Below are positions 2,669-64,000 of a stretch of 64,000 nucleotides of DNA, piece by piece. Each line of letters starts with the position of its first letter. Within the stretch, counting starts at the first letter, position 1. The DNA comes from a virus, in the IMG/VR virus record IMGVR_UViG_3300035182_002586, positions 62,001-126,000 of that record, one strand, 5' to 3'. The notes under the pieces are model-generated. The model made no database searches and was not told the DNA's origin. It saw nothing but the letters and a program-made list of their open reading frames with translations. The translations under genes and the position numbers were made by a program.

Positions 2669-4936
2669 TCACCCCTTGACTGCCTGGTTGTCGTCGAAGC
2701 TGACGATGATGGGGTCCTGTTGCTTCGGGGCGTCGACTTCGACGACCATCCCGCCGTTCTGCATCTGGTACTCGGCGAGCATCCCCATGCCGCCCGCCAT
2801 GAGGGACTCGTACGAGACCTCCGTGGCCGAGCCCGAGTTGAGGATCGCCGCCTGCTGCGCGGCCTTGTCCACGTACGGAGGCTCCTCCACGAGGGCCTTG
2901 TGGAGCTTCGAGCAGAAGCCCGGACGCGTCTGGTGGACGCAGCTCCCGCACTTCGACCCGGCCTTCACGTACTGGATGACACGAGCGCGGAAGAGCCTGG
3001 CCGGCTCCTCACAGCCCTTACCGTAGTCGTCGTAGACCGTCGGGTCGACGAAGTAGATGCCCTGGAGGCCCTGTTCTGCGAGCACTTCTCGCAGATCCTC
3101 GTTGGCGGCCACGAGGTCGCGCTCGTCGTAGCTGCGGCGGAGAGCATGTGCGAGGTCGTTGCCGTACAGGCCCTCGTTCATGTACTTCGATGCAGTCTTC
3201 ACGATCTCGCGCTTGACGAGGCCCGCCGTCACGTGCTGCGGCGAGTTGCCACGGAACGCCTGCACGGTCTCCATGCGGATACCCGCCTGAGCCGGCGTCG
3301 GCTGGAGCGACGCCCCACGGTACATCGTCTTGAGAGCGTCCTCCGGGGTGCTCCCCAGAACCGAGGCGTTCCGGAGCGTCTGGTCTGCACGACCTGCGAT
3401 CCGGTGGTCCTGGAGAACCGCGTCGGCGGTCTCCCACGTGACCACTTCGGTGGCCTGCTTCGCGAGGGGCTTGCCGTAGAGGAGGCAGCGGCCGATCTTG
3501 TTGTAGACGCAGCCCGAGCACTTCTCGCCAGCCACGACGGCGCGGATACCAGGGTTGTGCTTCGCGATGAAGTCCGACCCCTCGCGGCAGTCCGCGAAGC
3601 TGTCCTGCGTCGTGTAGATCGAACCGTAGAGCCCGGCCTCACGGAAGATCGGCTCCCAGTGCGGACGGGTCTCGTGGAGGTCGGTGAGCGAGAAGGCATA
3701 CTTGAGCGCCTGCCCGAGTTCGACCTCGCTCCGTCCCTTGAGCATCTCGCGACGGAGCAGAGCCACGACTGGAGCTGCCTTGTGCGCGGACATCGCGTAC
3801 TTGGCCGCTTCGTCACGCTTGCGCGTGAGGCTCTCAGCAGCGATGAGCTGGTTGCTCACCGTCTGCGGCGACACGGGGGCGATCGGGGCCTGCGTGCCCG
3901 CACCCACATACGCGTTGCGCGGCGAAGCCACGGCTGCCGTAACAGCCGCCACGACCTGCGCGAGCACGTCTGCGTCCTGCGTTGCTGCGATCGTGCGGAA
4001 CGCGACCTTTGCGTCCGGAACCGAGAGGCGCCCCGAACGAAGGGCGTCGTCGACGGCAGCGTGTGCGGTCTTCTTCTGGCCCGTGAGGTCCGGCGGGAGG
4101 ACGACGGGGGCCGCAGCCACCGTCGGCTTCATGTACTGCGCCGGGTTCACCACAGGCTTCGGAGTCGAGGCTTCCGATCCGTACGAAGCACCTTCCGCGA
4201 GCAGAGCGAGACGGACGCGTTCCTTCGGAGGTGCGTTCGACGCCTGGACCGCCTTGCCCTTCGAGGACTGGACCCGCTCCACCTCTTCGGCGAGGGCCTC
4301 CGAGTAGGGCACCTCGACGACGAGCTGCTTGTGGAAGACCGCGCAGTTGGTGCCGCCGACCGGCCCCTGGAGGGCGTGGGTGCAACCGTGGCACTCCGGC
4401 TTTGCGACGACGAACCGAGCATCGTTCGCGAACTTCCTGACGAAGTTCACGGCCTGCTTCGGGGAGTTGTGGCAACCCGAGAAGTCCGACGCGTCGATGT
4501 AGAGCTTGCCGAGAAGCCCACGCTCTGCGATGAGCGAGGCCAACACCGGGCGAGCTGCTCGCAGCGAGTCGAGGTCGAACCGCTTGACGAGGGCATCGCG
4601 CAACCGAGCGGGGTCCGGCGACTGCATGAGCGCGAGTCGGGCCGTGCGGATGATGTCCTCGGAGGTCGAGCTGATCGGCCCGTGTGCCTGCGAGAGGTCC
4701 CCCATCGTCGCCGGCCGGTGGTCCTTCGGAAGATAGTCCGTTGCCGGACGATCTTCGTGAGCCCACATCGCTTCGAGGTCGGGCGCGATGTTGAGGTTCT
4801 GCTTCGGCAGCACGTCCTGTGCTCGGTACTCGGCGTCATCGACGGCGAGCCACGACACGTCGTTGACGGAACCCTCCTTGGAGGTCGGGATTGCCCCCTC
4901 CTTGAGGAAGTCGGACAGGTCACCGAGATCAGCCAT
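2669..4936 (-). CDS. Triple Cys4-repeat protein of the virion block
   Basis: 755 residues from ATG 4936; it overlaps the upstream gene by 8 nt. A unit of about 100 residues occurs three times: a helical lead-in, a G-L-x-G-x-(I/L)-Y segment, then four cysteines. The cysteines are C155/C182/C185/C198, C450/C473/C476/C484 and C642/C663/C666/C675, so each unit reads C-x(20-26)-C-x2-C-x(7-12)-C. This would suit zinc or an iron-sulphur cluster. The segments between units are low-complexity, rich in Ala and Pro. The repeats are directly visible; the metal and the structural role are inferred. Confidence 0.7.
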   Translation of the reverse strand: MADLGDLSDFLKEGAIPTSKEGSVNDVSWLAVDDAEYRAQDVLPKQNLNIAPDLEAMWAHEDRPATDYLPKDHRPATMGDLSQAHGPISSTSEDIIRTARLALMQSPDPARLRDALVKRFDLDSLRAARPVLASLIAERGLLGKLYIDASDFSGCHNSPKQAVNFVRKFANDARFVVAKPECHGCTHALQGPVGGTNCAVFHKQLVVEVPYSEALAEEVERVQSSKGKAVQASNAPPKERVRLALLAEGASYGSEASTPKPVVNPAQYMKPTVAAAPVVLPPDLTGQKKTAHAAVDDALRSGRLSVPDAKVAFRTIAATQDADVLAQVVAAVTAAVASPRNAYVGAGTQAPIAPVSPQTVSNQLIAAESLTRKRDEAAKYAMSAHKAAPVVALLRREMLKGRSEVELGQALKYAFSLTDLHETRPHWEPIFREAGLYGSIYTTQDSFADCREGSDFIAKHNPGIRAVVAGEKCSGCVYNKIGRCLLYGKPLAKQATEVVTWETADAVLQDHRIAGRADQTLRNASVLGSTPEDALKTMYRGASLQPTPAQAGIRMETVQAFRGNSPQHVTAGLVKREIVKTASKYMNEGLYGNDLAHALRRSYDERDLVAANEDLREVLAEQGLQGIYFVDPTVYDDYGKGCEEPARLFRARVIQYVKAGSKCGSCVHQTRPGFCSKLHKALVEEPPYVDKAAQQAAILNSGSATEVSYESLMAGGMGMLAEYQMQNGGMVVEVDAPKQQDPIIVSFDDNQAVKG

Positions 4937-6701
4937 CTGAGTTCCTCGCGATCGTGGGACGGGGGCGCCCGTAGGTATTGGGCGTATAGTCGTGGACGTC
5001 TTGCTGCCATCGAACGTACGGGGTGTTCGTGTCCTCGTACGTCTGACCGGGGGCGATGGGGGTGTCGCGACCGATCTGCTTCGGGGCGCTCTCCCCATCC
5101 CCCGGCATCTCACTGCCTGCCTGGAAGGGGGTCGTGAAGAGAGGCATGGGACCGCCCGTGACATCCGGGTGTGGCGTGATCGGCGTCGGCTTCGCCGGAG
5201 GCTGCGTGCCCGGCAGCCCCGACTGTGAGTTCACCAGGTTGCCCTTGTCCCCGGGGAAGTAGTCGCTACGTGCAACTGGAGGCTGCATGTCGTTCGGGAG
5301 GATCGCCGTGGCGTCGTCCAGGAAGGCGACGATCGGCCTCGGGGGCTTCCCGTACGGGAACGTCGCGATGAACTCGAAGCCGGGGTTCTCGGCCGCCATC
5401 ACGATGAAGTCGTGGAAGTCCTTCTTCCCTCCGAGGGACGCTTCCAACTGCTTCGCCAGCTCCGAAACCGAGCGTGCGACGACCATCGTGGCTTCACCCT
5501 GGACCGGCTTCGTGTCTGCAAACACGTTGCGGTCACGGAGCTGGACCTCGATGTCCGAACCGTCCGCGCTGGCCGGATCCTTGGTCGGGCCACCGGGGTC
5601 GTGAGGGAGATCCGACGACGGACCCCACACACCCTTGCCCTTGGGGTCCTTGGGGTCCGCCAGCGTGTGCTGGATGCCGTCACCCTTGGCCCCGTACCCG
5701 ATCCCGAAGTCGTTCGCGTCCGTCGGCGTCGTGTCGGTGTTGGTACCCGGCATCGCCGACTCCGCTACGAGCGAGAGCTGCGTCGCGAGCGCGTTGGCTC
5801 GGAGCATGAGCTGCTGAGCCGTGCGTTCGACGAGTTCGTTCTCGTGGTCGCCCGGGTAGTCGTAGTCCCGGGGGCGGTTGTCGTAGCGATCCTGCGAGGG
5901 GTTCTCCCCGCGGTTCCACGACCCCCACGGACCGGGCTGGTCTCCACGATCGAGGTGCTCGACGCGCGGACCTGGAAGTGTCTCGACGGGCAGGGAGGAG
6001 TTCGCCTGCTTGAAGTCCGCCTGGATGTAGGTGTTGGAGGCCGTCTTCTGCTTGTAGCCGGGGAACAGCTCGGCGTTGTTCCCTGTCGGCTGGTCGTTGT
6101 TGAAGGCCGGGAGGGTCTCAGCGTCACCGCCGCCGGGCAGCTCCGAACGCTCCGGGGACTTGTCCTTGTCCTTTCGGACTGCGACCGCTTCCCAGTTCTT
6201 CGCGCTCGGCTTCCCAGCTCCCTCGATGTCCTCGTCCTCCACCTCGTCGAAAGCCTTTTCGGCCTCGTCGACGAAGCGGCTGACATCCTTCTTCTCCCCG
6301 AACGCGAGCTGCGCAAGCCTTGGCTTCCAGTGGGGGGCGTTGATCTCGTCGTGGAGCGTGTCGCAGAGCGAAGAGAGCGACTCGCATGCCTCGTAGAGCC
6401 GCTGACGCAGCTCCTTGACCGGCATGATGTACCCGCGACCGCCGATGTTGCCGTCGGGGCTCACGGTCGCCGACTTCACCCGGGCGAACTGCCGGCAAGC
6501 AGAGAGAGCGTGACCCAAGGCGATGCTCGACTGCCACAGCGTCGCCGCGAGCGGCTTGAGCGCCATGGGGTCGTACTCGTAGTTCTTCGGAATGCTGCGC
6601 TTTGACGGCATCCCGGGAGGTAGCTCCCCTGCCGTTCGCGACATGCCGTCGTCTCCCGGAAGGGAAGCGAGGATCTCCCGCGTTCTTCGCTTGGCGTCCA
6701 A
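4929..6701 (-). CDS. Large virion-block protein of unknown function
   Basis: 590 residues from TTG 6701, which has GGGAG six bases upstream over the previous stop codon. ATG 6644 (571 residues) also has a GGGAG and could be the true start. The N-terminal 150 residues are helical, the middle is a long Gly/Pro/Asp-rich linker, and residues 400-480 look globular. There is no recognised catalytic motif. The position in the terminase block suggests a structural protein. Confidence 0.65.
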   Translation of the reverse strand: MDAKRRTREILASLPGDDGMSRTAGELPPGMPSKRSIPKNYEYDPMALKPLAATLWQSSIALGHALSACRQFARVKSATVSPDGNIGGRGYIMPVKELRQRLYEACESLSSLCDTLHDEINAPHWKPRLAQLAFGEKKDVSRFVDEAEKAFDEVEDEDIEGAGKPSAKNWEAVAVRKDKDKSPERSELPGGGDAETLPAFNNDQPTGNNAELFPGYKQKTASNTYIQADFKQANSSLPVETLPGPRVEHLDRGDQPGPWGSWNRGENPSQDRYDNRPRDYDYPGDHENELVERTAQQLMLRANALATQLSLVAESAMPGTNTDTTPTDANDFGIGYGAKGDGIQHTLADPKDPKGKGVWGPSSDLPHDPGGPTKDPASADGSDIEVQLRDRNVFADTKPVQGEATMVVARSVSELAKQLEASLGGKKDFHDFIVMAAENPGFEFIATFPYGKPPRPIVAFLDDATAILPNDMQPPVARSDYFPGDKGNLVNSQSGLPGTQPPAKPTPITPHPDVTGGPMPLFTTPFQAGSEMPGDGESAPKQIGRDTPIAPGQTYEDTNTPYVRWQQDVHDYTPNTYGRPRPTIARNSDG

Positions 6702-60740: not shown

Positions 60741-61229
60741 ATGGGCAATCACGGGCTCGTCGCCGTCTACGCTGGCACGTTCGACCCCCCGACCATCGGG
60801 CACGAGGACCTCATCAAGCGGGCGCTCGGCTTCTGCGAGAAGCTGATCATCGGCATCGGGGTCAACTCGACCAAGACGCCGATCTTCACCGTCGAAGAGC
60901 GCGTCGAGATGCTCCAGAAGCTCGCGGACAACCCCCGGGTCGAGGTCGTGGCCTTCCAGGGGCTCCTCGTCGACTTCGTGCGCAAGAGCGGCGGGAGCAT
61001 GATCATCCGCGGCTTGCGTGCCGTGATGGACTTCGAGTACGAGATGGGCATCGCGCACGCGAACGCCGACCAGGCGCCGACGGTCGAGACCGTCTTCCTC
61101 GCGACCAAGCCGCAGTACTCGTTCATCTCCTCGTCTGTCGTCCGTGAGGTCGCCAAGTACGGCGGCTCCGTGCGACACTACGTCTCCCCGCTCGTCGAAG
61201 AGGCCCTCAGGGCCAAGTTCAGGAAGTAG
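60741..61229 (+). CDS. coaD: Phosphopantetheine adenylyltransferase
   Basis: 162 residues, the family length. Makes dephospho-CoA from 4'-phosphopantetheine and ATP. Y-A-G-T-F-D-P-P-T-I-G-H (T/H-x-G-H site), I-I-R-G-L-R-A-V-M-D-F-E-Y-E, and Y-S-F-I-S-S-S-V-V-R-E are diagnostic. coaE at 32458 performs the next step. The gene ends in four consecutive TAG codons (61227-61238). The suppressor-type tRNA follows 24 nt after the first stop. Confidence 0.93.
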   Translation: MGNHGLVAVYAGTFDPPTIGHEDLIKRALGFCEKLIIGIGVNSTKTPIFTVEERVEMLQKLADNPRVEVVAFQGLLVDFVRKSGGSMIIRGLRAVMDFEYEMGIAHANADQAPTVETVFLATKPQYSFISSSVVREVAKYGGSVRHYVSPLVEEALRAKFRK

Positions 61230-61253
61230 TAGTAGTAGGCGTTCTGGTGTCTT

Positions 61254-61327
61254 GCTCCCGTGGCCGAGTGGTTCAGGCGGGCGACTTTAAATCGCCGTCA
61301 ACGTGGGTTCGAGTCCCACCGGGGGCG
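61254..61327 (+). tRNA. tRNA with anticodon TTA (ochre-suppressor type), Tyr-like
   Basis: 74 nt without encoded CCA. Acceptor GCTCCCG/CGGGGGC (one G-T pair), TG, D-arm GCC/GGC with GAGTGG loop, anticodon stem GGCGA/TCGCC with loop CTTTAAA, short variable loop, T-arm GTGGG/CCCAC with TTCGAGT. U33 is followed by TTA, which reads UAA and by wobble possibly UAG. The loop equals the bacterial tRNA-Tyr loop with G34 changed to T. The amino acid is inferred, not known. Confidence 0.85.
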
Positions 61328-61830
61328 CTCCTCTTCAAGTGGTTGCGGACAGATGATTCGGCTACCCCAAGCTGTCTGACTACTTCACTCTTTGAGGTCT
61401 TTGCAATCAAGTCCAGAAGCTCCTCCATCGGAGGCCATGCGGCACGCTTAGCTCTAGGCTTTCGGTGCCCACACGAACGACACTGCACACTGGACTTGGC
61501 GATCGTAGTCCCGCACCGACAGGTCTTGTGTGTGGCCTTCGCGATGCTCCGCCCACAGAACGTTGCGGTCTGTGAGTCGCAGTTAGGACACAGAAACCTC
61601 AAGTTTTCTAGTCTGTGATCACGATTCACACCGTTGATATGGTCCAGCCGAAGCACGAGAGGTTTTCCTCCCCACTCGGGCCCAAGCTGACAGCCAACAC
61701 AGTGGGATGTGTCCAGGGCCAGGCGCGCGATAGCGTTGCGCACGTAGGCTGCCCCTCCACCAGAAGCAGAGGGTCGACCTAGAGCACGAAGAATTGCAGT
61801 GACACTAGCGTGCTCTCGCACAAGCACCAC
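61273..61830 (-). CDS. HNH endonuclease running antisense into the tRNA
   Basis: 185 residues from GTG 61830 (weak start). C-V-G-C, R-L-D-H-I-N-G and N-L-R-F-L-C-P-N-C form the HNH core, followed by C-R-C ... C-R-S-C and a helix-turn-helix (V-V-R-Q-L-G-V-A-E-S-S-V-R-N-H-L). The last 18 residues are the antisense of the tRNA, so the natural end was probably replaced on insertion next to the tRNA. Confidence 0.78.
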   Translation of the reverse strand: MVLVREHASVTAILRALGRPSASGGGAAYVRNAIARLALDTSHCVGCQLGPEWGGKPLVLRLDHINGVNRDHRLENLRFLCPNCDSQTATFCGRSIAKATHKTCRCGTTIAKSSVQCRSCGHRKPRAKRAAWPPMEELLDLIAKTSKSEVVRQLGVAESSVRNHLKRSAPGGTRTHVDGDLKSPA

Positions 61831-63600: not shown

Positions 63601-64000
63601 TCAAACCCGGTTGATGTAGCGGCTGACGACTCTGTGGGCGATCGTGGCGTTTTTCGGGCGCGTGCTGGCCTTGCCGAGCGCCTCTATCGCCTGCTGGAAG
63701 TCGTCCGGTACCTTCCACGCGTTCTCGTTGGGGAACCCGTGACCAACCCCGTACTGGTCTAGCAGGGCCCGGACTGTCTTCACGGAACGGTCGATCTGTG
63801 CGACTGCCTCCGCTTCGACTTTGCCCTTGAAGGGGGTGTAGAAGTCTTTGAACGAGATCACCTGCTGGTGGGCGTCGCTGTACTGCTCCGCGATGTCGAA
63901 GGGGATGGCCATCCCCTCGTTCGTGTAGAGGAGCGTCATGAGCTTCGCCGACTCGGCGTACAGCTTGATGAACATCGCCGTGTAGTCGTGGGCGGCTACG
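63601..64000 (-). CDS. Helical protein with C-terminal HRVVSRY tag, N-terminus beyond the window
   Basis: About 133 residues visible, frame open at the right edge; ATG 63975 is a possible internal start. Helical with aromatic loops. It ends I-A-H-R-V-V-S-R-Y-I-N-R-V, similar to the N-terminal tag of three other proteins but at the C-terminus. Confidence 0.6.
   Translation of the reverse strand, partial: VAAHDYTAMFIKLYAESAKLMTLLYTNEGMAIPFDIAEQYSDAHQQVISFKDFYTPFKGKVEAEAVAQIDRSVKTVRALLDQYGVGHGFPNENAWKVPDDFQQAIEALGKASTRPKNATIAHRVVSRYINRV

What the first reader, a model, noticed from the sequence alone, without database searches (positions are those of the whole stretch)
61254..61327. Phage tRNA with anticodon TTA: an ochre suppressor
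All arms fold cleanly and the anticodon loop CTTTAAA places TTA after U33, which reads UAA. It differs from a tRNA-Tyr loop by one base. Few phages are known with suppressor tRNAs, mostly for UAG or UGA; UAA would be rarer. TAA ends only about three intact genes in this window, so suppression would spare most phage genes while disturbing host genes that end in TAA.
Basis: partly seen in the sequence, partly recalled or inferred. Interest (0 to 1): 0.88.

Follow-up and report, generated by a model that had tools for sequence, protein, structure and literature searches.

The report
Phage ochre suppressor tRNA near PTH2
A very large phage carries a well-formed tRNA that should read the stop codon UAA, and comparison with other phages shows that such stop-reading tRNAs usually sit beside a gene for a peptidyl-tRNA hydrolase, a pairing I found described nowhere and that can be tested in cultured phages.

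Summary
Window 61254-61327 is a clean tRNA (Rfam 55.4 bits) with anticodon UUA at 61287-61289. It belongs to a 529-kb jumbo phage with 53 tRNAs and a tmRNA, and it lies 15 kb outside the tRNA array. Its body is closest to the phage's own tRNA-Arg(UCU), not tRNA-Tyr.

UAA is not recoded: no conserved gene needs UAA read as sense. TAA ends 5.6% of genes, about what composition predicts, so the claim that suppression is shaped to spare phage genes is weak.

The larger result comes from relatives. In all six clade genomes found to carry a stop-anticodon tRNA (UUA in two, CUA in four), a PTH2-family peptidyl-tRNA hydrolase gene lies 12 bp to 4.2 kb away; in ours it is 3.4 kb away, outside the window. 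A PTH2-based scan of IMG/VR found stop-anticodon tRNAs in 55 of 80 loci, usually just downstream on the same strand. Cultured mycobacteriophages (Myrna, Phabba, HyRo) and Lak phages show it too. Six PTH2 genes contain one in-frame stop, always TAG, five of them with a CUA tRNA nearby, in stretches that otherwise look non-recoded. Charging, readthrough and PTH2 activity remain untested.

The parts
61254..61327 (+). tRNA with UUA (ochre) anticodon; discriminator G73, no encoded CCA; closest to tRNA-Arg(UCU)
   Evidence: ARAGORN; Rfam 55.4 bits; comparison with the phage's own tRNAs
61287..61289 (+). anticodon TTA (positions 34-36), complementary to UAA
60741..61229 (+). phosphopantetheine adenylyltransferase-like gene (coaD-like) just upstream; its stop is followed by three more in-frame TAG codons. 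Neighbour, not found in the six clade genomes compared
   Evidence: Pfam CTP_transf_like 1e-25, sequence
61273..61830 (-). HNH endonuclease ORF whose 3' end runs antisense into the tRNA; two similar copies lie inside the phage's tRNA array. Probably a mobile neighbour
   Evidence: PHROG HNH 1e-30
63601..64000 (-). part inside the window of a DnaJ-like gene (genome 125601-126632), next to which, outside the window, lies the PTH2 gene at genome 126682-127002 (window-equivalent 64682-65002, minus strand)

Best explanation
The tRNA is a genuine ochre-type suppressor and the UUA version of a recurrent phage pairing: a stop-anticodon tRNA with a PTH2-family peptidyl-tRNA hydrolase. Most likely mechanism: the tRNA is charged (amino acid unknown; Arg by descent, but A20 and C35 are lost while U35 and G73 would suit GlnRS) and competes with release factors at UAA, perhaps weakly at UAG. 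Ribosomes that read through pass gene ends, stall or drop peptidyl-tRNA, and PTH2 (with the phage tmRNA) cleans up and recycles the tRNAs. In some other phages PTH2 itself holds an in-frame amber codon, so it would be made only when the suppressor works. Shown: the tRNA, its anticodon, the proximity to PTH2 across phages, the PTH2 fold, the in-frame TAGs, absence of UAA recoding. Inferred: charging, decoding, PTH2 activity and the benefit to the phage.
For: tRNA quality and compensatory pairs. PTH2 within 12 bp-4.2 kb of the stop-anticodon tRNA in all six clade genomes that carry one; no PTH2 in G031, which has none; combined chance of such closeness about 1e-8. Of 80 PTH2 loci from IMG/VR, 55 hold a stop-anticodon tRNA (49 CUA, 4 UUA, 2 UCA); counting ours, 56 of 81, with 52 on the same strand as PTH2, 50 downstream, 46 within 1 kb; 54 CTA tRNAs in these loci against 8 for the next commonest anticodon; none in 753 kb of control loci. 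Same pairing in cultured Myrna, Phabba, HyRo and in Lak-A1/B5. Reverse test: UUA loci found by tRNA pattern alone, L077 and L081, also hold PTH2. Six PTH2 genes with one in-frame stop, all TAG, five with a CUA tRNA, in stretches where reading TAG as sense adds little coding sequence. PTH2 model pLDDT 97, top matches all Pth2. TAG avoided in three of four amber carriers.
Against: In this phage PTH2 is 3.4 kb away on the opposite strand, a looser link than in most. No UAA readthrough target was found: the only in-frame TAA crossed by homology is an ordinary gene boundary. TAA avoidance is marginal here and absent in the other UUA carrier, G052, where TAA ends 43% of genes. Phage PTH2 has lost the Lys of the archaeal GK.A.Q motif and has Glu for the Asp of RDAG (alignment). 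About 30% of PTH2 loci show no stop-anticodon tRNA, and T4-like phages have PTH2 without one.
Confidence: 0.55

Rival explanations
1. Idle suppressor: a duplicated tRNA-Arg that drifted to a UUA anticodon, unused and neutral, as proposed for 'suppressor pre-emergence' in crAss-like phages.
For: No recoded UAA anywhere; precedent without reassignment in PMC7886860 and PMC12386605; TAA usage near composition.
Against: Five compensatory pairs against its closest sense relative show maintained structure; recurrent link of such tRNAs with PTH2 across unrelated phages.
Confidence: 0.2
2. Non-decoding tRNA: the module needs a tRNA kept out of sense decoding, as PTH2 substrate, decoy or regulator; a stop anticodon is simply a way not to disturb translation.
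For: In eight high-GC loci the tRNA-like genes just upstream of PTH2 lack a usable anticodon: extended stem with a tetraloop (L607, L608) or 9-nt loops. The anticodon varies (CUA, UUA, UCA) while the PTH2 link stays.
Against: In-frame TAGs in PTH2 genes beside CUA tRNAs imply real decoding there; amber carriers tend to avoid TAG.
Confidence: 0.15
3. Host sabotage: readthrough at host UAA stops cripples host proteins while the phage, with few TAA stops, is spared.
For: TAA ends few phage genes; the idea is published for suppressors in crAss-like phages.
Against: TAA rarity matches base composition; the host is unknown and high-GC hosts also use few TAA; G052 carries a UUA tRNA although TAA ends 43% of its genes.
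Confidence: 0.1
4. UAA is reassigned to sense in this phage.
For: Anticodon only.
Against: No conserved gene crosses an in-frame TAA; the one candidate is two genes in seven relatives; TAA is a normal stop in 39 genes.
Confidence: 0.01

Closest known systems
TTA-Sup tRNA of an alpha crAss-like phage (OKSC01000115, PMC7886860)
   Same: UUA anticodon in a phage that does not reassign TAA
   Different: Arose from tRNA-Gln by one base change; ours is nearest to tRNA-Arg, lies outside the array and is in a high-GC jumbo phage; no PTH2 link was reported in the passages read
Amber and opal suppressor tRNAs of jumbo phages XacN1 (PMC5852040) and Atu_ph07 (PMC6102473)
   Same: Suppressor tRNA in a tRNA-rich jumbo phage without known targets; both phages also encode a peptidyl-tRNA hydrolase
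   Different: CUA and UCA, not UUA; adjacency to the hydrolase was neither reported nor tested here
Phage PTH2 (Iyer et al. 2021, PMC7824862; cluster C mycobacteriophage arrays, PMC5966550)
   Same: Same PTH2 family in jumbo phages and mycobacteriophages, proposed for ribosome rescue
   Different: Passages read make no link to suppressor tRNAs
Code-15 phages (TAG to Gln) with CUA suppressors (PMC9523058, PMC11210395)
   Same: Phage-encoded suppressor
   Different: Those reassign a stop genome-wide; here no reassignment

Membership tests
Ochre suppressor tRNA | Canonical tRNA fold with UUA at positions 34-36 | tested here: met
Ochre suppressor tRNA | Aminoacylated in the infected cell | not testable with these tools
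   needs tRNA sequencing; identity elements ambiguous (U20, U35, G73)
Ochre suppressor tRNA | Causes UAA readthrough | not testable with these tools
   needs reporter or proteomics
Alternative genetic code (TAA to sense) | Conserved genes interrupted by in-frame TAA | tested here: not met
Stop-anticodon tRNA and PTH2 phage module (proposed here) | PTH2-family gene near the stop-anticodon tRNA | tested here: met
   3.36 kb in a 529-kb genome, chance about 1.3% alone
Stop-anticodon tRNA and PTH2 phage module (proposed here) | Within about 1 kb, same strand, tRNA downstream, as in most members | tested here: not met
   opposite strand, 3.36 kb
PTH2 peptidyl-tRNA hydrolase | Pth2 fold | tested here: met
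   Pfam PTH2 5e-6 for this phage's protein; a related phage PTH2 modelled at pLDDT 97, Foldseek top 14 all Pth2-type
PTH2 peptidyl-tRNA hydrolase | Conserved catalytic residues of cellular Pth2 | tested here: inconclusive
   Thr kept; Lys replaced by Gln, Asp by Glu in the alignment with 2zv3

The most novel reading that the evidence does not exclude
Many phages carry a two-part translation-control circuit: a stop-anticodon tRNA (amber, ochre or opal) and a peptidyl-tRNA hydrolase. In some, the hydrolase gene contains an in-frame amber codon, so the enzyme that cleans up after stop-codon readthrough is made only when readthrough works. The window's tRNA is an ochre version of this circuit; in one branch the partner tRNA has even lost its anticodon.
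Probability: 0.4. Interest if true: 0.87.

Novelty: new variant of a known kind. Interest (0 to 1): 0.74.

Why it matters
Suppressor tRNAs in phages that do not recode stops have been a puzzle (PMC7886860, PMC12386605, PMC5852040). A conserved partner gene gives that puzzle a handle: it suggests that the cost or the purpose of suppression lies in peptidyl-tRNA. The in-frame amber codons in PTH2 are the kind of specific target that XacN1's authors looked for in that phage and did not find. Because the pair occurs in cultured mycobacteriophages of a standard laboratory host, the question becomes directly testable.

Tried and rejected
UAA recoding: one in-frame TAA candidate (genome 416655-417467 and 412731-416636) is one ORF in G004 but separate ORFs in seven relatives, so an ordinary boundary. 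Charging by the phage-encoded ArgRS (genome 133556-135298): attractive, since the tRNA is Arg-like, but ArgRS occurs only in this one of the seven genomes compared, and the tRNA lacks A20 and C35. Direct descent from G002's CUA tRNA: alignment score no better than between many unrelated isotypes. Release factor in the phage: none found. A third conserved gene in the module: none convincing. PTH2's own terminal stop matching the suppressor: no clear correlation. Host from ArgRS: too diverged. Theta ribozymes or other Rfam RNAs near the tRNA: none in the window at gathering scores. Correction: the 60 of 80 printed also counts tRNAs with unreadable anticodons; the right figure is 55 of 80, and the Fisher p that used 60 is not quoted.

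Full report
The thing itself. ARAGORN and Rfam agree on a full-length tRNA at 61254-61327 with anticodon UUA. The window is G000:C1:62001-126000 of a 528,957-bp IMG/VR virus record, GC 64%. ARAGORN finds 52 further tRNAs for all 20 amino acids, at 138.8-176.4 kb, and a tmRNA. The UUA tRNA stands alone 15 kb from that array, between a coaD-like gene and an HNH endonuclease ORF. Its nearest sense tRNA is the phage's own tRNA-Arg(tct): 57 of 74 bases, ungapped, score 40, above the 99.9th percentile (33.6) of pairs of different isotype within a genome; second is the Arg(tct) of a relative. Five pairs differ on both sides and stay paired. All five Arg tRNAs of the phage have A20 and the suppressor has U20; from E. 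coli knowledge A20 and C35 mark Arg, so its amino acid is open.

No recoding. A simple codon-pair gene caller gave 697 genes ending TGA 420, TAG 238, TAA 39 (685 genes in an earlier run). TAA is 5.6% of stops against 5.7% of stop trinucleotides. Homologous alignments from six relatives crossed one in-frame TAA, which proved to be a normal gene boundary. Pfam finds no release factor. An ArgRS is encoded.

Relatives. Two conserved proteins led to a jumbo-phage clade in IMG/VR. Of 52 records searched by tRNA patterns, and seven read nearly whole or whole, stop-anticodon tRNAs are: UUA in G000 and G052; CUA in G002 (two), G004, G048 and G051 (two); none in G031. The patterns miss some tRNAs, so 'none' is secure only for the genomes read. 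TAG is under-used as a stop in G048, G004 and G002 but not in G051.

The partner. A gene 3.36 kb from the UUA tRNA matches Pfam PTH2. Its homologues lie 12 bp (G002), about 370 bp (G004), 520 bp (G051), 1.7 kb (G048) and 4.2 kb (G052) from the stop-anticodon tRNAs; G031 has none. A scan of IMG/VR with the PTH2 alignment gave 80 loci, 55 with a stop-anticodon tRNA: 49 CUA, 4 UUA, 2 UCA. With ours added (56), 52 are on the PTH2 strand, 50 downstream, 37 within 500 bp and 46 within 1 kb. Some loci are near-identical copies, so these are not all independent. Clade control loci, 753 kb, have none. In the other direction, loci gathered by a UUA-tRNA pattern without regard to PTH2 include L077 and L081, which hold PTH2.

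Cultured phages. Myrna and Phabba have a CUA tRNA 150 bp, and HyRo one 290 bp, from PTH2; Phabba's is annotated tRNA-Arg(tct) and HyRo's is unannotated. Lak-A1 and Lak-B5, metagenome-assembled phages whose stretches open up when TAG is read as sense, have a UUA tRNA within 700 bp. LR756500 and pT24 have CUA tRNAs at 0.8 and 2.5 kb. Three Aeromonas phages, a Vibrio phage and Stenotrophomonas phage CM1 have PTH2 without one in the stretch read.

Amber codons inside PTH2. Six of the 80 PTH2 genes (L565, L571, L580, L611, L616, L618) contain one in-frame stop upstream of the conserved EPD...LTA region, and all six are TAG. Five have a CUA tRNA in the locus; L618 is cut short. In these stretches ORF coverage hardly changes when TAG is read as sense (for example 0.88 and 0.88, 0.76 and 0.78), unlike Lak (0.43 and 0.85). 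The stops sit at about four positions, so there are at least about four independent events. Sequencing error is not excluded for single cases but would not favour TAG alone.

PTH2 identity. Profile matches reach Pth2 structures (2zv3, E 5e-7). A model of a related phage PTH2 has pLDDT 97 and Foldseek places it on archaeal and human Pth2, TM about 0.8. The Lys of the GK.A.Q motif is Gln here and the Asp of RDAG is Glu, so hydrolase activity must be assayed.

Literature. Ochre-type phage tRNA: PMC7886860. Jumbo suppressors: PMC5852040, PMC6102473. No jumbo phage of 10,754 recodes TAA: PMC13037316. Phage PTH2: PMC7824862, PMC5966550. A search for papers holding peptidyl-tRNA hydrolase, suppressor tRNA and phage gave six; I read the relevant passages of the two phage papers among them and neither links the two. 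The library lacks most subscription journals, so novelty of the pairing is provisional.

Verdict. The finding is real and, alone, a rare member of a known kind. Its setting points to a conserved tRNA and PTH2 pairing of which this is a loosely spaced UUA case. Function is inferred.

Noticed in passing
L607 5824-5899, L608 5846-5920; also L588, L591, L593, L595, L603, L615 just upstream of PTH2: tRNA-like genes with no usable anticodon: anticodon stem extended and capped by a GCAA or UUCG tetraloop, or 9-nt loops with UAAUGA.
   Followed up: partly
L643 (Myrna) about 4330-4510 and L653 (Phabba) about 5330-5500: Between PTH2 and the CUA tRNA lie two hairpins with the same loop GGUCAAAG ending in GCACCA, resembling tRNA acceptor minihelices.
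   Followed up: no
NC_054714 32921-32991; NC_028869 about 92250-92320: Amber-anticodon tRNAs in mycobacteriophages annotated as tRNA-Arg(tct) (Phabba) or not at all (HyRo); a C-C mismatch closes the anticodon loop.
   Followed up: partly
window 61227-61238: coaD-like gene ends in four tandem TAG codons; only three other runs of three or more TAG (either strand) occur in the 529-kb genome.
   Followed up: partly
genome 133556-135298 (L037:13556-15298): Phage-encoded arginyl-tRNA synthetase, about 34% identical to bacterial ones; absent from the six other clade genomes compared.
   Followed up: partly
genome 142777-143031: tRNA-Leu genes with short variable arms (anticodons CAG, GAG, CAA), unlike canonical class II tRNA-Leu.
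   Followed up: no
G002 239885-241182, G051 257557-257714, L597, L626, L637: Twin CUA tRNAs occur close together in several PTH2 loci.
   Followed up: no
G048 (437 kb): TAG ends only 5.8% of genes against 16.7% of stop trinucleotides in a phage with one CUA tRNA and no visible recoding.
   Followed up: yes
L524:9400-14019: A methyltransferase/helicase-like gene fused to its upstream neighbour only in G004, separate in seven relatives.
   Followed up: yes
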